Below are positions 5,820 through 60,497 of a stretch of 64,000 nt of DNA, in pieces; positions within the stretch are counted from its first letter, which is position 1; the number at the start of each line of letters is the position of its first letter. The stretch spans positions 1,589,071 through 1,653,070 of the forward strand of contig JAPYXD010000469.1 of assembly GCA_030998225.1 (NCBI GenBank), read 5' to 3'. Under the pieces are notes generated by a model. That model was not told the origin of the DNA and searched no databases. It worked only from the letters and a program-made list of their open reading frames with translations. Position numbers and translations under genes: made by a program. The stretch is from Diplolepis rosae (Eukaryota; Arthropoda; Insecta; Hymenoptera; Diplolepididae).

Positions 5820-8800
5820 CTTTCGTAAAAACCCTTTTTTATGACTCAGGGGGTCTCAAAACGTAAAGATTTGATGAAAATATCGAAAGTCATTTTTCAC
5901 ATAAAACCAATACCTTCTCATCCATGATGAGAATGTAAAAATCCAGAAAAATACATATATAGATTTTTGGGGTCGCTGATTTCGAACCCGAGGTCCGTTG
6001 ACCTCCGTCATATCAGATTCAAGGTCATTTGAAGGTCAGAATGTAAAAAACCGGATGAAAAAAAAAATACATATATATAAGTTTTTGGGAACGCTAAATC
6101 CAAAGGGGTTCATTTAACAGCATAACAGCTCAATGATATGATGGAGGTCAACGGACCTCGGATTCGAAATCGGCGACCCCAAAAACCTATGTATGTATTT
6201 TTCTGGATTTTTTTATCGGATTTTTGCAGTTTGACCTTCAAATGACCTTTAATCTGATATGATGGTGGTCAACGGTCTTCGGATTCGAAATCAGCGACCC
6301 CAAAAATCTATATATGTATTTTTCTCGATTTCGTTTATTGGGTTTTTTCCCAAAAACACGGCATAGAAGCGGTGAAGTTTTCATTCTTCTAAGGGATGCT
6401 TGGGGTGAATAGGGGGGATGAGGGTGGTTCGTTTAGGGTGGAATTGACTTCTTATTGTTAGTAGATACTGTAGGATTTTTTTCGAATTTTTTGGGCCAAA
6501 AACCGGCCTTAGAGACCCTCCCCCTTTTACAATATTTTTTATTTGATATTCTGAAATGAAATTTCTCCTGGTTAACCGAAATCAGAAAATCATACGAAAT
6601 GGACAATTGTTAAAGTCGCTGTCACAGTGAAAAAGGAAACAATCCCCTGCTCCAATGGGCGCTGTAGACAGCAGCCTAGGGCTAATTCGCACTCCTGCAC
6701 TCAAGTTGCTTGCTCGCTTTGCACAAATAAGGTGGGAATTTCGAAATGCATAATATAATATATAATTAAATCACTTTATGTAACACATTTAAAACAAATT
6801 AAAATCGTTTTTTATTAAAAATTTAAAAAAATTCCCGGTCATTTCCCGGTCCAACGGCCACCCTGTTATTGATATCAGGTTTCTACATGTTTGTGTCTTA
6901 AGTACATATTTTCTTTTCAAAATTTGGAAAATGATAGTAAAGTTTAAAGCGGGCATAGATAGACTACTTTTGAAAAATAATCAATTTTAGCAAAATATAC
7001 CGAAAATATTTTTTCATTATTAAAATCAAATCCGTTTTTATCTTCTCTAACATTTCCCAAATTTTGAAAACAAAATTTTGTATTTTTTGGACACAAACGT
7101 GTAAAAACGAAAAATCTATAAAAATTCCTTATTTCCTAAGTATCACATGCCCTTAATGTTAAATATAGAGGAAAGTAAAACTGCATAAGTTTCAAATATT
7201 TACTAAAAGATTATTAAAAATTTGGATTTAAAGAAGAAATTATACTTCACGTACAAGTCCAATAAGATAGGGACTCCCTGCATCTCCAAATGTGTGAGCT
7301 ATTAGAATTTGAAACGCCTCCGCCGTGGATCTTCTTGTAGGGATAACGACATACTGTAAAAAATTCGTCATAATATGTATTTTCTTCAGGTTTCATAACT
7401 TTTTACTAAAATTGCGATGCTATTTTTTAGCTATTATTTTACTTAAGAAAAACTGTTTTACCAACTTTTTAATGAAGTCATTTTACTATTTTTAATTAAA
7501 ATTTAACTTTCATTTGTTTGAGTTTATTCGCTATTGAATTTATATTTGCTATATTCTCAAAGAGCGATATCTTAAATATGTTGAGTTTTTGAATACGAAC
7601 ATAAAAATTTTTCGCAATAATTTTACGCAAAAATATATATGGCTTCGCTAGAGAAAAAATCTGTCTTACCAAAAGCATATCGGCAACAATCGACCAATTG
7701 ATATTAATAGCAATCTGGCCAAAAAATATCAACGCATAGCACCCAGCAGCGTTAAATCCAGCGAAGATAGTTCCAAAGAATATCAGAGGTGCGCTAATAA
7801 GAAGGCCTCCTGCGCAAATGAGCGGATCTGCATTCGGATAGAGGACCCGCAATTTTTGCGCTAAAATAGACCCCAAGGGAACGCCCACCACTCCAGCAAT
7901 CATTGCCGTCAATCCGAACTTATACGAAACCCTGATAAATTAAGGCATTTGTAATTATAAATTTTGTATCTTATAATTAGGTTCCAAAATACAAAAAGGC
8001 TTAACGAGATGTATTTATAGCATACTTCACATGTAATAAACATTTTAAAATTATGATTGAACAAGTTATTCAAACAATTTTATAAAAGAGAAGATAATTT
8101 TATTACCGGATGAAAAACCCCGCACCAAATGTACTGGAAATGGCTTCTTATAAAAAATTATATCTTTTTTTTTTGCGATACTTGTACTTTTTACAAGTAT
8201 TTTAATAGAAAAATGTCGTTTTTAACGAAAAGTTATCTATCTTAAAAACTTATTGTCGAAATTGGTTATATACCTCACACGATTTAGATCTAGCACACTG
8301 AATAAAAGTTTTACACTCATGAACTTTGTTAGATGAAAAGAATGGTTCTTCCAGGAATATAAAAAACCTTATTAATTTTTGCCAACGTTTCGACCTCTAC
8401 TCTGAAGACATCATCAGGACACTACTAGGGTGTTTGATATTGACGTGATAGAATGAACAAGAATCTTTTTTTTCGGCAAAATCGGTTTTATTTATCAAGG
8501 TATTCTCCTTTTAGCTCGATACAAAGAGTCCGACGAGCTTATACAGTCTGTTCCACAAGAAAAGGTACGCGTTTTCTCAGGAGTTTCAAAAAATTTTATT
8601 CCTTTCTATTATGTCCTGACTGTACGTTCGAAGGGCTACGGCGCAACCACCGATTTGTTTCAGTCTTGTTCGAAGTGTCAGATATTACACAACATTAAGC
8701 TATGAGTGCTATCTACGCTAAACGTTACGAAGAGAGAGACGCGAGCAACGTCCAGTAAGGAGGATAAGATGATCGTTGCACTGTTCAAGCGCAACCCAAC

Positions 8801-43383: not shown

Positions 43384-44140
43384 AAGGGTTTCCCAATAAG
43401 GGTGATATGTTTTGAAATTGAAAAGAAACACTGAATATTCATTCGGAATTGATCGAAATCTTTTTTATTATATTGGATATTCTATGCCATTTATGATTTA
43501 AACAATATATCGGCCAAATGTCCCCCGAGACTTGAGCCAAAAATGCGCCTCATCAGAAAAGATGATTTTTTGATGAAAATTGGGATCATTTTCAATTGAT
43601 TCCAGAGCCCAATCCGCGAACTCCCGACGCAAACGATGGTCATTAGGCTTCAGTTCTTGGGCCAGAATCATCTTATAGGGATGCAGGCCAAGATCCAATC
43701 GCAATATACGCCAGGTAGTCATCCTGGACAGGCCCAATTCCTGAGATCGGCGTGGCACGGACAATTCACGGTTTTCCTCGATACTGGCCTGTATGGCGGC
43801 TATATTCTGTGTAGAACGTGCGGTACGCATACGATTTTTAGGCTTAGTATCCAATAGAGTAAATTCACTCTCCAACTTATCGATTATTCGACGAATTGAG
43901 AGCGCGGATGGAGCAGAATGACGACCATATTTTGCACAATATGCTCTTTGAACACCGACAAAACTTCTCGAATTTTGATAAAATAATTGGACAATTTCCA
44001 AACGTTGTGGAAGCGTGAAACTACTCATGATTAAATGGCAAACCTTACTGATGACAACTGACAGCAGACGTCAAAAATTTCAGTTCAAATGAGCCCGATA
44101 GGGACATTCAAAATCATATCACCCCTATTGGGAAACCCTT
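43384..44140 (-). mobile_element. Tc1/mariner-superfamily deletion derivative
   Basis: Ends AAGGGTTTCCCAATAAGGG and reverse complement (about 30 bp), TA at 43382-43383 and 44141-44142. 757 bp, with most of the transposase gene deleted. Confidence 0.85.
43498..44028 (-). pseudogene. HTH (DUF4817-like) transposase, internally deleted
   Basis: 176 codons from ATG at 44028. N-terminal helix-turn-helix of the DUF4817 type (FTLPQRLEIVQLFYQNSRS), a second HTH around ELGLSRMTTWRILR, then the first catalytic Asp in FSDEAHFWL. Immediately after, the frame shifts: GGHLADILF, the usual C-terminal motif, appears in another frame. So a deletion removed the second and third acidic residues. The upstream frame is intact, so insertion was fairly recent. 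Confidence 0.85.
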
Positions 44141-46435: not shown

Positions 46436-47203
46436 TGTTACGTCACAAGTACGTAAATACTTACTTTGATCGAAGATTCCTCGTTTTAAGTTAGGATCGA
46501 ATGATCCTCGCTTAGGGATGAGGATAAGTCAATGAAAAGACACAATGATTATCAAATAATAAAAATTGAATTTATTAAAATAATTATAAATTGAAAATAT
46601 TAAATGGTCGATACAATTGATTTATAATTGGAGGCACAGGCTGGTTGGTTGGAAAGAGATAGAACATACATATATATATAGAGAGAGAGAGAGAGAGAAG
46701 AGTTCGGTACCTTTATGATTTCCCTTTGTTTCCTTAAATATTCCTCACAGGTATGACTGCGATGCGATTCCCACAGGTGTGACTGCGAAGGAGTGAATAT
46801 CCACAGGTGTGATAAGGACACAACAACTATTCACTCTTTTTAGCACTGAGTCTAAGATCCTTTCAAGTATTGAAAAACGGACCACGGTAAATTTATGACT
46901 CTCGGGTCTTTACACTGTCAAAATGCACGGTATAATTGTCTCACGCTGAGAATCCTTTTTAGTTTTTTAGAAAATGCCGCACTTAAATTCTGCTCACAAG
47001 ACTAGCTTTCCCTTGGCGGCGTGTCCTTTTTATATTATATTTTTTGGTGACGTCACGCGTTGCGCAGTCTCCCGCTGCGTGTGACGTAGTTATACCTCTC
47101 TTTTCAATAGGTGGTTTTCTCTCTCTTTTAGTAATTTCCCCAGATTTCTCTCTAGACCTAGCCTATGCCTATAGTACATTCTAATGCGTCGCGGGACGTG
47201 ACA
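46436..47203 (-). mobile_element. 3' LTR of an env-bearing retroelement
   Basis: On minus it begins TGTCACGTCCCGCG and ends GACGTAACA, with the TG...CA termini and inverted tips of LTRs. A TATA box (TATAAAAAG, 47034-47026) and a polyadenylation signal AATAAA (46576-46571) define U3-R-U5 order. A purine-rich tract directly precedes it. 768 bp. It includes a (GA)n tract at 46680-46699. The 5' LTR is not in the window. Confidence 0.8.
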
Positions 47204-47214
47204 CCTCCCCACCT
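47204..47214 (-). promoter_or_regulatory. Polypurine tract
   Basis: AGGTGGGGAGG directly before the LTR on minus: the primer site for plus-strand DNA synthesis in LTR retroelements. It fixes the orientation of the element. Confidence 0.75.
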
Positions 47215-47641: not shown

Positions 47642-48091
47642 TTAAGAATTATTTTTATATTTTCTATTACGTACAGGGTTGCGGCAGTTATGAGCTAAAT
47701 GCCCTCTTTGAAAACACCTTTCACAAGAGTTGGTCCATTTTGGCAAGGTTTCTTTACTGATTTCATCACTTATTTTGAAAATTCTCGTTTCTGGGATTAA
47801 GCTTTTTTCTTTCATTTCTTCTAAAAATACATATCTTGTGGAAAGCATTTCCAAGAGTTTAGATGCTGCATTTTGCTTTGCAGACTTTTTTTGAGGGGCT
47901 GGTTCCCCAATACAAGAAAAAGTTATTTTATTTTTAAAAATTTCGCAAGTCGCTTGGAACGGTGGCAGTTTTTGGTGTTTTCCAAGCGATTTTACAGTAT
48001 ATGAGGGTTCGGAGAAATCATACTCAATGCTTATCTCGTTTAAAACTTGTACAGCAGTGCCTTTCGATAGGTCTCTTGTCTGCAAGGCCAT
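47642..48091 (-). CDS. dsRNA-binding-domain plus CCHC zinc-knuckle accessory protein
   Basis: 149 residues from ATG in the context CAAAACAATGG; a splice acceptor TTCTTTTGCAG ends 9 bp upstream, so it is probably read from a spliced message. Residues about 13-84 fit a double-stranded-RNA-binding domain: helix VQVLNEISIEY, strands around PPFQATCEI and ITFSCIGE, and the RNA-contacting KKSAKQNAASKLLEML helix with KKxAK at 68-72. Residues 123-136 are a perfect retroviral-type CCHC knuckle (C123, C126, H131, C136), followed by a basic tail. It lies between env-side ORFs and the LTR. dsRBDs occur in Dicer partners and in some viral RNAi suppressors; suppression of silencing is my inference. The frame is open throughout. 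Confidence 0.72.
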   Translation of the reverse strand: MALQTRDLSKGTAVQVLNEISIEYDFSEPSYTVKSLGKHQKLPPFQATCEIFKNKITFSCIGEPAPQKKSAKQNAASKLLEMLSTRYVFLEEMKEKSLIPETRIFKISDEISKETLPKWTNSCERCFQRGHLAHNCRNPVRNRKYKNNS

Positions 48092-48453
48092 TGTTTTGAT
48101 CTGCAAAAGAATTACCTGTTTGAGTTGATGATTGAATTTATTGAAATTCTAAAGTTAGTTAGTTTTTTTTTGTAATAATTTTGTGTTTGTTGATATATTC
48201 ACTTTTCGCGTTGCCTAAATCAAAGAGATATTTCATGCAGAGAAAACAGTGGTCTGTTTTTAAGAACATTTTAATTTATTAAGGTTTGTCGTTACATTAA
48301 AGCGGTTAAGGAAGAAGTAGTGGTGTATATGAAATATGATTTTAAACAACGAATACAAAATTAAAAGGGAAAATTTTTTAACAAAAGTTAGTAATAGATA
48401 TTGTTTATATTTAGAAGAAAGAATAATAAAAAATATGTTTTGATTTATTATTT

Positions 48454-48885
48454 TTATTCGTCGTTGTTATAAATAATAGTCGATGCTTCGGAATCGACGT
48501 CGTTATACAGTGCTTCTTGTTGGTATAAATGAATTACACGTTCGGCACAAGTTACACATAAATCTGCTCTTTGCCGCATGTAAAAAATTTGTGTATTGCA
48601 AATGGAGCAGTCGAGGCTAGATAGTTTTAACGTACAATATAAGTCTTTAGTAACTATGTGGTCTATTCGGACGGGTAATGTTACTTCGGTTTCGAAAAAG
48701 CTGAGTTCTGTCATCCAACAATCCTCGCAAACAAGTTTTTTTTCGAGAATATTCATGTAAAAATTCTCGACCAGGGTTGTGCAGCAGTATTCTGACCATA
48801 ATTGATTTTCAAAATACGGCTGAACATCTTGCTCGCTTGCTCGAACTTCTTCTGCTTCGATTGTTTCGATTTCTTGGGGCAGCAT
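48454..48885 (-). CDS. Cysteine-rich accessory protein 2, putative zinc binder
   Basis: 143 residues from ATG at 48885; acceptor-like TTTCCCCAACAG ends 4 bp before the ATG. Three CxxC pairs (53/56, 93/96, 110/113) and C84 form C-x8-CxxC-x13-CxxC, the exact spacing of the neighbouring ORF at 49025-49432, so the two are ancient duplicates. N-terminus and C-terminus are acidic. No membrane segment or signal peptide. Function unknown. Confidence 0.65.
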   Translation of the reverse strand: MLPQEIETIEAEEVRASEQDVQPYFENQLWSEYCCTTLVENFYMNILEKKLVCEDCWMTELSFFETEVTLPVRIDHIVTKDLYCTLKLSSLDCSICNTQIFYMRQRADLCVTCAERVIHLYQQEALYNDVDSEASTIIYNNDE

Positions 48886-49024: not shown

Positions 49025-49432
49025 TCATGCAGGGGTATTTTCTACTTGAACTTCGTTTCCTTGGCTAATTTCGAATTTATAATTTAAATATTGTTCGATA
49101 CATTCTTTACAATCAGCTGCTTTTTTTCCCGGAGTAATTAATAGTTCTTGACAACCGTAACAATTCATATATATGCATTCCAATTTACAAATGGAATGCC
49201 ATGAAGTAAAAAATTCACAGTTATTTTGAGTTTCCTGATCTAATTTCTCGAAACAGAATTGGCAATATCTTTTTGTGGTTTGGTGATTATAATATAAAAA
49301 CAATGTTGAGGGTTCTAATTCGAAGCAATAACTTTGTAATAGGTGCGCGTATGCTATCGGATAGTCTTGCGGACATACACCGTCTACTGGTCCAAGATGA
49401 TTAACAATAGGTTCACTTGGAGTCGGTATCAT
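49025..49432 (-). CDS. Cysteine-rich accessory protein 1, putative zinc binder
   Basis: 135 residues from ATG at 49432; the acceptor CTAACAATTTGTAG, with a branch-like CTAAC, ends 3 bp before AAAATG. CxxC pairs at 57/60, 91/94 and 108/111; C82-x8-CxxC-x13-CxxC matches its neighbour exactly, though overall residue identity is low. Function unknown; it could fold as a treble-clef or RING-like zinc module. Confidence 0.65.
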   Translation of the reverse strand: MIPTPSEPIVNHLGPVDGVCPQDYPIAYAHLLQSYCFELEPSTLFLYYNHQTTKRYCQFCFEKLDQETQNNCEFFTSWHSICKLECIYMNCYGCQELLITPGKKAADCKECIEQYLNYKFEISQGNEVQVENTPA

Positions 49433-49764: not shown

Positions 49765-50697
49765 TCAAAAGTTAAACGTTAAGTCGGTCAGTAAAGGTTT
49801 TGTCACTGAGCTTAAAGGAGTTTTTTGTATAAGTTCTATACGTGTTGGCGTTTTGTTTATTTTTTTAGATATTTTTTGAATGTTCAATAGTAATAATCCT
49901 AAAATTGTAATCATAAGTAAAGTGATAATAATTAGTGCTAATGTTAATTTATGTGCACTAGAAATAAAAATAGATGGAATAATTTTTTGAATGTTTGCAT
50001 ATTTTGTAAGGATAAAGACATGGTTTTCGAAGATTGATAATGGCATGTCTTCTTTTTGCTGAAGAAGAAGTAATACCTTTTTTAGTAAGTGAGGTTCTTG
50101 AATGGAAATATTATATAAAAATGGTGAAATTATAGCAAGGGAAGTAGTTGATTTGCTGACTGGAATTGAATTATCCATTATATTCAAATGGTTTTGAAGA
50201 TGGTAATATGGAGTTGATGAATCTGGATTGCAACCTGATTTTGTTTGCAAAATTCCTATTCCTTGGAGTGTGATTAAGGTCTTAGAGTTTTTTCGACATG
50301 ATAAGAAAATTTGTCGGGGGAAAATTGTTGAGTATAGCCATCCATGATGAAATTGCAATGGTGTTAGAAAGGGATATTCACTAAAACTGATGAATATTTT
50401 ACACTTGTATGGTTGAGAATTTAAAAACATTGATGTATGATTGGTTATTTGAAGAAATAGCGAGATAAGAATTTTGAGGTTTTATGTAAATAGAGGAAAT
50501 TACGTCAGTATTGAAATCAAGATGTATTGGAATTGGATGTGGTTTAAATAATTGAAATTCTTCAGCAGATGGGATTGGTATAGTCATAATAAAAATCAAG
50601 TACTTATCGAATAAGAAGTATTGTATTTTAGAAAATGGAAGGACCATAGAAAAAAGGGATGTTGAAAGCTGTGAGTTTTCTTTGTTAGATTTGAAGT
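49765..50697 (-). pseudogene. Envelope fusion protein (errantivirus/F-like), truncated and frameshifted
   Basis: Two overlapping frames. The upstream one (open from the junction at 50697 to 50399) has IPIPSAEEFQLFKPHPIP and SYLAIS, matching the central part of insect errantivirus Env, kin to baculovirus F. The second (50430-49765) has the GSG-like CRKNSKTLITLQGIGIL...GC motif, a membrane anchor at residues 161-183 and a tail of about 38 residues. The frames are out of register near 50400-50430, and the first half of Env, including the cleavage site and fusion peptide, is missing. Not functional as it stands. Family members mediate entry of enveloped virus-like particles. Confidence 0.7.
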
Positions 50698-51010
50698 CTA
50701 CCCTACCGGAAATCTAGACGAGTTCTAGACAAGATTGTCTAGGAGCGATCCTCTAGAATTGACCCCTTTCTAGAGTCATGCTAGACTCATTCTAGATGAA
50801 TAAAGGTTCAGTCCCTTTTTTACAAGGGTAGCAGTAAAGTCATAAATTGTCCTTAAGCCGACCCTATCGATATCTATACCTGTTTTATGATCGTTCAGCA
50901 TGGGTCTAGAACGAATCTAGAACGTGTCTAGTGCGCATCTAGAATGAGTCTAGTGCGCATCTAGAATATGTCTAGTGCGTATCTAGAGATAGTCTAGTCC
51001 AGTCAAGAAA
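50698..51010. repeat. TCTAG-rich repeat with tandem array
   Basis: The word TCTAG or CTAGA recurs more than 15 times. From about 50908 to 50995 it forms a tandem series of GTCTAGTGCGCATCTAGAAT-type units of about 29 bp, made of two half-units. It starts exactly where env breaks off. No gene. Confidence 0.8.
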
Positions 51011-58768: not shown

Positions 58769-58963
58769 TGAATTGTAAGGAGTTAAGTAATGGTTTTCTT
58801 AAATAACAAAAACCTGTCATTAGTCATCCGATACATACAATCATCAAAACATCATACAATTTCATTCACACCATTCAGTCGCAGCCAATCATATTTTCTA
58901 TCACAAATACACTTAAATATGCAGCTACGCAAATATAACCCTAATGACTAAAATTTATATATA

Positions 58964-60248
58964 CACTACCGTCGGAAATTGTGCGCACGGTGCTTGTGAT
59001 CGCTATTAAAAATTACTGCTGACTTTGAACCACGATATCTCGGTAAAAAAAAAAGAGATAGGGCATTTTTAAAAATACCGTTGGAAAGCTTATGAAATTT
59101 CACATCTAGTGATGTTCAACAAATATTTTTTTGATTTTCTGAAAATAATACAGCACGTGAGGAGTTAAAAAAAAAAATTCAAGATTTTCTCAAATTCTTT
59201 ACCTTAACTTCAACTTTTAGCATGACCTAGGAAAATTTTTCCAAAATCTAAAAATTATATGACATAGAGTCTAAAATCTCATCTTTAATTTAAGCCAAGA
59301 AAACTTAAAAAATATTCATGGGTACCCGAGATACGATTTAAAATGTTCAATCGTATCAGAGTTGAATTTAAATCGAATATCGCGGTTCTCGGCCGGTTTG
59401 TTGTTTGCCTCCTTTGTTGAGGCAGGACCGAATAGGCCACGCACAAAGGTGGTGCTTAAGTGGAGCTCTCTTATATGTTCTTTGATCCAAGAACGTGTTT
59501 CCTTTATTTCCTTTCCTTTCAATCTTAGTTGATATTTACAATGACTATTTAAATTTTTATCAATGTTCTAGTTTATAAGAATTTTAAGAAATAAAAAATG
59601 TTTAGATATCATCGTTCTATTCGTTAGTATGGAGATAATATTGGATTAAAATAATTGTTAATAATCACAAATAACAATAAATATTTTGTAAAATTTAGAA
59701 TAATTAGAAATGAAAATTACTAATGAACAGAATCAAAAATACATATAAGAGAGCTCCACTTAAGCGCCACCTTTGTGTGTGGCCTATTCGGTCCTGCCTT
59801 AACGAAGGAGGCTAGCAACAAACCGGCCGAGAACCGTGATCGTCGATTAAAATTCAACTCTGATACGATTGAACATTTTTAATCGTATCTCGAGTACCCA
59901 TGAATATTGTTTAAGTTTTCTTGGCTTAAATTAAAGATAAGATTTCAGACTCTATGTCGTATAATATTCAGATTTTGGAAAAATTTCTAGATCATGCTAA
60001 AAGTTGAAGTTAGGGTAGAGAATTTGAGAAAATCTTGAATTTTTTTTAACTCCTCACGTGCTGTATTATTTTCAGAAAATCAAAAAAATATTTGTTGAAC
60101 ATCACTAGATGTGAAATTTCATAAGCTTTCCAACTGTATTTTTAAAAATGCTCTATCTCTTTTTTTTACCGAGATATCGTGGTTCAAAGTCAACAGTAAT
60201 TTTTAATAGCGATCACAAGCACCGTGCGCACAATTTCCGACGGTAGTG
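58964..60248. mobile_element. Long-inverted-repeat Tc1/mariner-type element, second member
   Basis: TA flanks at 58962-58963 and 60249-60250; ends CACTACCGTCGGAAATTGTG and exact reverse complement. Arms of about 550 bp face each other over a short AT-rich centre near 59640. Same family style as 32608-34177. Confidence 0.8.
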
Positions 60249-60497
60249 TAAGACGATCATAGAGATATTATAGATAGAGGAGACAAGCCAGCCTGGAAAC
60301 CTGTCAGCTCGGGCGAGAGAGTGAATTGTGGGTTAGGTTAGGCTTAAATAAACAAATTTTTTTAAACGAAAAATACCTACAGTTTTTTTCAAAAAATACT
60401 TCTTTCTTTAAAAAAATTGGAGTTTTTTGGTTTTTAAATTATTTTATATTAGTAGTAATGTAGGCGGATATTTCCTAGGAGATATATAACCCTCCGA

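What the first reader, a model, noticed from the sequence alone, without database searches (positions are those of the whole stretch)
47642..48106. A retroelement gene fusing a dsRNA-binding domain to a retroviral-type zinc knuckle
The ORF joins a credible dsRBD (PPF strand, KKSAK and helix 2) to a C-x2-C-x4-H-x4-C knuckle. It lies downstream of an env remnant and about 430 bp before a polypurine tract and LTR. I know of no described errantivirus-type element with such a gene. By analogy with dsRBD silencing suppressors of RNA viruses, it could shield element RNA from Dicer-2 or piRNA pathways; the knuckle could alternatively tie it to RNA packaging.
Basis: partly seen in the sequence, partly recalled or inferred. 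Interest (0 to 1): 0.88.

Follow-up and report, generated by a model that had tools for sequence, protein, structure and literature searches.

The report
Insect retroelement with RNA-silencing-shield genes
A very abundant 17.6-kilobase retrovirus-like element in a genome that is likely an insect's carries, besides pol and a gag-type gene, two envelope-type genes of different viral families and three genes with predicted double-stranded-RNA-binding domains, the last of them kept by purifying selection, and these would likely shield the element's RNA from the host's RNA silencing.

Summary
On the minus strand, 48091-47642 encodes 149 residues with a dsRBD (Pfam above cutoff; predicted dsRBD fold) and a C-x2-C-x4-H-x4-C knuckle, 438 bp before a polypurine tract and a 768-bp 3' LTR.

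The window copy is a fragment. Other copies in the same assembly show a 17.6-kb Ty3/gypsy-type element: 762-bp LTRs, 4-bp target duplications (5 of 5) and near-identical LTR pairs. It has a gag-type ORF and pol, then seven ORFs: a Monjiviricetes/chuvirus-type fusion glycoprotein, a tandem-dsRBD protein, a second dsRBD+knuckle protein, a Baculo_F envelope, two CxxC proteins and the ORF of the finding. That makes four dsRBD matches in three genes (two of the four below Pfam's cutoff) and two unrelated envelope-type genes. Acceptor-like sites precede the seven ORFs.

Two young subfamilies give dN/dS of about 0.14 for the 149-residue gene; dsRBD and knuckle are constrained, the linker less so.

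Most likely function (inferred): an accessory suppressor of RNA silencing. Packaging or RNA transport is the main rival. My paper searches listed no LTR retroelement with dsRBD genes, but one key eLife paper could not be read.

The parts
47642..48091 (-). dsRBD3: 149-residue ORF, dsRBD (residues 14-83) plus CCHC knuckle (C123, C126, H131, C136)
   Evidence: Pfam dsrm E=6e-7; predicted fold and Foldseek match; dN/dS about 0.14 between young subfamilies
48101..48116 (-). predicted 3' splice acceptor (attcttttgcag) 9 nt before the dsRBD3 ATG
   Evidence: score matched or exceeded at 30 of 2180 ATGs of the window; kept in 30 of 30 loci, the window's own included, and in 9 of 9 further copies with upstream sequence
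48454..48885 (-). CxxC2: 143-residue ORF with CxxC pairs, acceptor-like AG 4 nt before its ATG
   Evidence: 34 database relatives; intact-looking in 22 of 30 loci; no Pfam family above cutoff
49025..49432 (-). CxxC1: 135-residue ORF with CxxC pairs, weak acceptor-like AG 3 nt before its ATG
   Evidence: full length without stop or indel in 10 of 10 longer copies; dN/dS 0.11 between subfamilies over 132 codons; no Pfam family
49765..50700 (-). remnant of the Baculo_F-type env gene, broken by a loss of about 110 nt near 50435
   Evidence: Baculo_F E=2.2e-6 for 50713-50402, no Pfam hit for 50481-49768; 97% identity to other copies, which have the missing stretch
47204..47213 (-). polypurine tract directly before the LTR
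   Evidence: run of five or more purines before TGTCACGT in 30 of 30 loci, the window's own included
46436..47203 (-). 3' LTR, 768 bp, TGTCACG...GTAACA
   Evidence: matches the 762-bp LTRs of intact-ended copies; homology of the 29 other loci stops within 21 nt of 46436

Best explanation
The ORF is the last of seven open reading frames after pol in a 17.6-kb Ty3/gypsy-type LTR retroelement, and its protein is predicted to bind double-stranded RNA and would likely suppress the host's Dicer-dependent RNA silencing. Shown: the element, its gene order, the dsRBD match and the knuckle pattern, and purifying selection on both domains between subfamilies. Predicted: the element is expressed like a complex retrovirus, each of the seven genes from its own spliced mRNA, because an acceptor-like AG lies just before each start codon. 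Inferred: dsRBD3, which keeps the KKxAK dsRNA-contact lysines, coats dsRNA of the element and siRNA duplexes, so that Dicer cannot cut them and RISC cannot be loaded. The tandem-dsRBD protein (dsRBD1), arranged like the first two domains of Loquacious/TRBP-class Dicer partners, would compete at the same step. dsRBD2, which has lost those lysines, would act by protein contact. The knuckle would add single-strand RNA binding or guide the protein to element RNA.
For: dsRBD by profile and predicted fold. Element with paired LTRs, 4-bp target duplications in 5 of 5 copies and length 17,615-17,638 bp. Gene order from Pfam. Two more dsRBD genes in the same element: dsrm E=1.5e-11 and 0.0012; the dsRBD2 protein also has the knuckle and matches dsRBD3 at E=1e-6. 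Tandem domain in dsRBD1: E=0.0019 for the first, about 1e-11 for the second. dN/dS 0.10-0.19 for dsRBD3 between two copies of one young subfamily and eight copies of other subfamilies. KKxAK-type motif in 14 of 16 full-length database relatives. Acceptor-like sites before seven of seven ORFs, combined P 6e-5 within 20 nt. A single-dsRBD viral protein of like size, IIV-6 340R, blocks Dcr-2 processing and RISC loading (PMC4231766, passages).
Against: No binding, expression or silencing was tested. In IIV-6 340R the dsRBD alone did not bind RNA or suppress, so a dsRBD does not prove the function. PDB and viral fold matches are to many kinds of dsRBD. The splice-donor patterns tried gave nothing in the leader, and no transcript was examined. 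Alone, the sites before dsRBD1, CxxC1 and CxxC2 are unremarkable (fractions 0.08-0.15), and the start of the glycoprotein was chosen with the site in view. Among recent copies selection is hardly visible. dsRBD2, the paralog with a knuckle, is open over its whole length in only 6 of 10 copies. Repression of LTR elements in insect gonads runs largely through piRNAs, which need no Dicer (recalled), so a Dicer-directed shield may not meet the main threat.
Confidence: 0.55

Rival explanations
1. dsRBD3 is an RNA packaging, chaperone or nuclear-export factor: knuckle and dsRBD together recognise structured element RNA and help load or export a 17.6-kb genome and its unspliced or partly spliced RNAs.
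For: The knuckle is of nucleocapsid type and the most constrained part (dN 0.041, dS 0.458 for knuckle and tail). A long element with many predicted acceptors would need export of unspliced RNA.
Against: The gag-type ORF already has two CCHC knuckles. Three dsRBD genes with different RNA-contact residues are more than packaging needs (inference).
Confidence: 0.25
2. The dsRBD proteins act by protein contact, as mimics of Dicer partners that join Dicer or other small-RNA factors, rather than by coating RNA.
For: dsRBD1 has two tandem dsRBDs and its only PDB sequence match is Loquacious-PB, E=0.0046 with no single stretch passing on its own. dsRBD2 has TSELAEN where the KKxAK lysines would be (sequence). 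Several top fold matches are Dicer-partner domains.
Against: dsRBD3 itself keeps the lysines, so for the ORF of the finding RNA binding is the simpler reading.
Confidence: 0.15
3. dsRBD3 is a passenger, a captured gene without function for the element.
For: Among recent copies differences are too few to show selection (window against L002: 3 nonsynonymous, 0 synonymous), and non-coding spacers diverge less than synonymous sites in older pairs.
Against: Same place in 30 of 30 loci. Omega 0.50 over 35 distinct copies, log-likelihood -1964.6 against -1975.0 for omega 1. dN/dS 0.10-0.19 between subfamilies at dS of about 1.
Confidence: 0.04
4. It is a host gene that merely lies beside an LTR.
For: None found; a host donor gene was not searched with success.
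Against: At least 150 matching places in the assembly, with the same LTR downstream in 29 of 29 other loci examined.
Confidence: 0.01

Closest known systems
Insect errantiviruses (env-bearing Ty3/gypsy elements, Metaviridae)
   Same: Ty3-type RT, integrase with H2C2 domain, LTRs with TG...CA ends, 4-bp target duplications, Baculo_F-type env.
   Different: 17.6 kb, a second and unrelated fusion glycoprotein, three dsRBD genes and two CxxC genes. That classic errantiviruses lack such genes is recalled; my paper searches listed none with them.
LTR elements with chuvirus-type glycoprotein (Anakin, BEL-Pao, mosquitoes)
   Same: A glycoprotein of chuvirus type captured by an LTR retroelement (PMC7642597, listing and passages).
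   Different: Here the element is Ty3/gypsy and keeps an F-type env too. PMC10084718 (parts 1-3 of 5 read) found the glycoprotein near gypsy fragments but no clear capture by gypsy. PMC13172572 (passages) mentions gypsy elements with type III fusion glycoproteins.
dsRBD-type viral suppressors of RNAi (IIV-6 340R, DCV 1A)
   Same: Small protein, one dsRBD with a C-terminal extension; same predicted fold. An iridovirus dsRBD protein is rank 11 among viral fold matches.
   Different: Encoded by a retroelement, with a zinc knuckle and in three paralogous or related genes; suppression untested.
Loquacious/R2D2/TRBP-class Dicer partners
   Same: Tandem dsRBDs in dsRBD1; best fold match of dsRBD3 is Loquacious dsRBD1.
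   Different: No third Loqs-type domain was found; zinc knuckle or half knuckle instead. Descent from such a host gene is not shown.
Complex retroviruses (Retroviridae with accessory genes)
   Same: Small genes around and after env, predicted to be expressed by splicing.
   Different: Pol is Ty3-type; no homologous accessory gene is known to me (recalled).

Membership tests
Errantivirus-type Ty3/gypsy element (Metaviridae) | Ty3/gypsy-type RT and RNase H | tested here: met
   RVT_1 E=1.2e-35, RT_RNaseH E=7e-39; best PDB match Ty3 Gag-Pol E=9.8e-97. No RT tree was built.
Errantivirus-type Ty3/gypsy element (Metaviridae) | Integrase after RT | tested here: met
   Integrase_H2C2 E=5.4e-21 and rve E=5.4e-13, downstream of RT
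Errantivirus-type Ty3/gypsy element (Metaviridae) | Paired LTRs, TG...CA ends, short target duplication | tested here: met
   762-bp LTRs, 4-bp duplications in 5 of 5 copies
Errantivirus-type Ty3/gypsy element (Metaviridae) | F-type envelope downstream of pol | tested here: met
   Baculo_F E=1.7e-21 over 295-580 of 618 residues
Errantivirus-type Ty3/gypsy element (Metaviridae) | tRNA primer-binding site beside the 5' LTR | not tested
   The 24 bases after the 5' LTR were seen but not compared with tRNAs
Errantivirus-type Ty3/gypsy element (Metaviridae) | Gag | tested here: inconclusive
   626-residue ORF in gag position with two CCHC patterns; zf-CCHC 20.5 bits, just below its cutoff of 20.8, and no gag family
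dsRBD (PF00035), dsRBD3 | Profile match above cutoff | tested here: met
   30.3 bits against 23
dsRBD (PF00035), dsRBD3 | Alpha-beta-beta-beta-alpha fold | tested here: met
   Predicted model only; a first model failed
dsRBD (PF00035), dsRBD3 | dsRNA-contact lysines KKxAK | tested here: met
   QKKSAK in the window; 14 of 16 full-length relatives, 44 of 66 with fragments
dsRBD (PF00035), dsRBD3 | Binds dsRNA | not testable with these tools
   Needs a binding assay
dsRBD (PF00035), dsRBD2 and first domain of dsRBD1 | Profile match above cutoff | tested here: not met
   dsRBD2 19.8 and 21.5 bits, first domain of dsRBD1 19.2 bits, cutoff 23; dsRBD2 is tied to the family by its paralogy to dsRBD3
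CCHC zinc knuckle | C-x2-C-x4-H-x4-C | tested here: met
   Sequence; strict pattern in 12 of 16 full-length relatives
CCHC zinc knuckle | Profile match above cutoff | tested here: not met
   zf-CCHC_3 23.8 bits against 27, zf-CCHC 11.1 against 20.8
Monjiviricetes (chuvirus-type) fusion glycoprotein | Profile match | tested here: met
   E=8e-248 over profile positions 6-649 of 653; no PDB sequence match
Viral suppressor of RNAi | Relieves silencing | not testable with these tools
   Needs a reporter assay
Complex retrovirus (Retroviridae) | Retroviridae-type pol | tested here: not met
   Ty3 matches at about 1e-96, retroviral RTs at about 1e-38

The most novel reading that the evidence does not exclude
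Insects host a lineage of truly complex retrovirus-like elements: a 17.6-kb Ty3/gypsy element with two envelope glycoproteins of independent viral origin and an arsenal of four dsRBDs in three genes that disarms the host's Dicer pathway, all expressed by alternative splicing. It would be the first LTR retroelement known to encode its own dsRBD-type suppressors of RNA silencing.
Probability: 0.5. Interest if true: 0.94.

Novelty: new variant of a known kind. Interest (0 to 1): 0.87.

Why it matters
Transposable elements are held down by small-RNA pathways, yet I know of no animal LTR element that carries a dsRBD silencing suppressor (recalled; searches listed none). This family offers three candidate genes, one of them with clear purifying selection, at least 150 matching copies in one genome, and LTR pairs that differ by at most one base, so the activity is recent and can be tested protein by protein. 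Two envelope-type genes of different ancestry in one element also raise the question of how it enters cells and whether the two serve different steps.

Tried and rejected
Shallow AlphaFold2 model: useless; rebuilt with paralogs. Scan of viral contigs for the ORF: 22 pattern matches, no relative. Ten window ORFs scanned and three element pieces aligned to the window show no part of the element outside 50700-46436. Host donor of the dsRBD: not found out, because the genome search for PF00035 did not complete. CxxC1 and CxxC2 as paralogs: E=0.051 only, left open. dsRBD1 against dsRBD2: no BLASTP match. Contig-length coincidences among database proteins (10089, 4429, 3167, 7902 bases) agree with linkage but are weak beside the genome loci. 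A first orientation of the loci reported only 14 of 30 and was replaced.

Selection, results against included. Recent copies: pairwise dN/dS 0.26-0.51 by dS bin, while the non-coding spacers diverge less than synonymous sites in the bins with more pairs and higher dS, so dN against spacer is only mildly low there; single pairs have too few changes, some with dN above dS (dsRBD1 6 to 1, envF 6 to 1); fixed-difference tests P=0.038, 0.032 and 0.28. Dropped before the omega: 6 of 50 copies with frame-breaking indels; 44 rows, 35 distinct. Dropped: 2 of 10 fetched copies with 148 codons. Copies were chosen by protein similarity, which lowers dN. In one search the log-likelihood was -1541.4 free against -1586.3 at omega 1 with kappa 4, the highest of three kappa values tried, so the gap is an upper bound; the free omega was not printed.

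Full report
What is in the window. The ORF lies on the minus strand, ATG at 48091, stop ending at 47642, 149 residues. Pfam finds a dsRBD above its curated cutoff and a zinc knuckle below its own. Further up the same strand lie two ORFs with CxxC pairs (48885-48454 and 49432-49025) and the C-terminal part of an envelope gene with a Baculo_F match. Below lies the 3' LTR, 47203-46436, after a polypurine tract; 438 bases separate ORF and LTR. The window copy begins abruptly at 50700 inside env and lacks about 110 nt near 50435 that other copies have. No other part of the element was found in the window.

The family in the genome. The window's assembly has 757.7 Mb in 428 contigs. A search with the protein gave 2351 first-look candidates; 150 were scored and all 150 matched, the window's own included. 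By my count of the listing, 124 of 150 have no internal stop and 25 share one identical score. In the 29 other copies fetched with 1.5 kb on each side, homology stops within 21 nt of the same LTR end, and the ORF is exactly 149 codons in 27 of 30 loci. A second search, with a relative about 60% identical, scored 150 of 1708 candidates: it found another young subfamily, 21 places of identical score by my count, and a 100% match to that relative itself. So the database relatives appear to include proteins of this very species, and spread to other hosts is not shown. That the host is an insect is taken from the finding and the mobile elements; it was not tested.

The whole element. Ten copies were followed upstream and five of them to the 5' LTR. 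The LTRs are 762 bp with TG...CA ends and 4-bp target duplications in 5 of 5 copies; pairs differ by 0, 1, 0, 0 and 0 bases; length is 17,615-17,638 bp. From 5' to 3': a 626-residue ORF in gag position with two knuckle patterns but no gag profile match; RT and RNase H (Ty3 Gag-Pol is the best PDB match); integrase; a fusion glycoprotein matching Monjiviricetes_fusion at E=8e-248 over almost the whole profile, a group to which chuviruses belong (recalled); dsRBD1, 245 residues with two tandem dsRBDs, the first below Pfam's cutoff; dsRBD2, a dsRBD just below cutoff plus a CCHC knuckle; an F-type envelope, 593 residues from its ATG; CxxC1; CxxC2; and dsRBD3, the ORF of the finding. dsRBD2 and dsRBD3 match over dsRBD and knuckle (E=1e-6); dsRBD1 and dsRBD3 match over the dsRBD (E=4e-5); dsRBD1 and dsRBD2 do not match by BLASTP. 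Glycoprotein and dsRBD1 are present in 9 of 10 longer copies; full length without stop or indel are the glycoprotein in 7 of 10, CxxC1 in 10 of 10, CxxC2 in 22 of 30 and dsRBD3 in 28 of 30. dsRBD2 has two C-terminal forms in three copies each, and is shorter or not found in the other four of ten.

Expression. An acceptor-like AG lies 1-16 nt before the ATG of each of the seven ORFs after pol. Against the 359 ATGs of three sense-strand pieces, the combined P is 6e-5 within 20 nt and 2e-4 within 40 nt; singly, four of seven are below 0.05 within 20 nt. The weight matrix is a recalled generic one. For the glycoprotein I took the second ATG of the frame, with the site in view; its Pfam match starts just after it. 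The dsRBD3 acceptor is kept in 30 of 30 loci and in 9 of 9 further copies with upstream sequence. Against: the donor patterns tried found nothing between the 5' LTR and the start of gag, and no transcript was examined.

Selection. Within recent copies there is too little change and the controls are mixed. Over 35 distinct copies omega is 0.50, with a log-likelihood about 10 units better than omega 1; post-insertion branches pull it up and the choice of copies by protein similarity pulls it down. Between young subfamilies, L002 against L066 gives dN 0.147 and dS 1.085, ratio 0.14; over two copies of one subfamily against eight of others the ratio is 0.10-0.19. By region: dsRBD dN 0.149, dS 1.380; linker 0.249 and 0.536; knuckle and tail 0.041 and 0.458. 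dS above 1 is imprecise. One copy of the second subfamily, followed 8 kb upstream, has the same gene order. There integrase, glycoprotein, env and CxxC1 give dN/dS 0.11-0.14 and dsRBD1 0.28; the glycoprotein, dsRBD1 and dsRBD2 frames are broken in that copy, the dsRBD2 row is a cross-match, and CxxC2 (about 40% identical) is saturated in dS. dS is about 0.2 in integrase and glycoprotein but above 1 in env and CxxC1, so the two subfamilies look like mosaics, most simply by recombination (inference).

Structure. With paralogous domains in the alignment the dsRBD of dsRBD3 is modelled with good confidence and the knuckle part with low confidence. The top PDB matches are Loquacious dsRBD1 (E=1.5e-4), a DCL4 dsRBD2 and TARBP2 with Dicer; the top viral match is a nudivirus dsRBD protein. 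Such matches show the fold, not the ancestor.

How it likely works. dsRBD3 keeps the KKxAK lysines (14 of 16 full-length database relatives) and is predicted to bind dsRNA. The nearest tested analogue is IIV-6 340R, one dsRBD with a C-terminal extension, which binds long dsRNA and siRNA and blocks Dcr-2 processing and RISC loading (PMC4231766, passages); there the dsRBD alone did not suffice. By analogy I commit to suppression of silencing, at 0.55. Packaging or export is the main rival; protein contact fits dsRBD1 and dsRBD2 better than dsRBD3.

What is known. Searches joining errantivirus, LTR retrotransposon or retrotransposon with dsRBD, dsRNA-binding or silencing-suppressor terms listed no paper that by title or abstract describes a retroelement with such a gene; the lists were capped or partial (30 of 113, 20 of 27, 15 of 21, 13 of 13, 15 of 15). 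Chuvirus-type glycoproteins in BEL-Pao elements are known (PMC7642597, passages). PMC10084718 (parts 1-3 of 5 read) saw them near gypsy fragments without clear capture by gypsy. PMC13172572 (passages) mentions gypsy elements with type III fusion glycoproteins and builds on a catalogue of 289 metazoan errantiviruses (Chary and Hayashi 2025), which is not held here; elements with two envelopes may be in print there.

Noticed in passing
L034:2304-7838 (G000:C380): Two unrelated envelope-type genes in one element: Monjiviricetes fusion glycoprotein and Baculo_F envelope, with two dsRBD genes between them.
   Followed up: partly
L076 against L034: Synonymous divergence jumps from about 0.2 (integrase, glycoprotein) to above 1 (env, CxxC1) between two subfamilies: a mosaic, perhaps by recombination near dsRBD1/dsRBD2.
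   Followed up: partly
L039: Deletion derivative: LTR and gag-type ORF, then an ORF containing dsRBD2, then env and CxxC1; glycoprotein and dsRBD1 gave no match.
   Followed up: partly
L032 and L038, about 6105-7830: About 1.7 kb lies between env and CxxC1 in both copies; an ungapped comparison of the two gave 36% identity, so they were not shown to be the same insert.
   Followed up: partly
L034:4639-5373: The dsRBD1 protein ends in CFKCGYRPPNQYNKF, which looks like half of a zinc knuckle.
   Followed up: no
L031 and L034, end of dsRBD2: Two C-terminal forms of dsRBD2 by a one-base difference; one has a proline-rich FPPPVPPRN stretch.
   Followed up: no
window 43498-44070: Minus-strand ORF that looks like a piece of a Tc1/mariner-type transposase (label recalled).
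   Followed up: no
window 7496-7939: Minus-strand ORF that looks like an exon of a membrane transporter (spinster-like, recalled): a possible host gene.
   Followed up: no
window 58962-60250: A 1.3-kb stretch that is its own reverse complement at 86% identity, a long palindrome.
   Followed up: no
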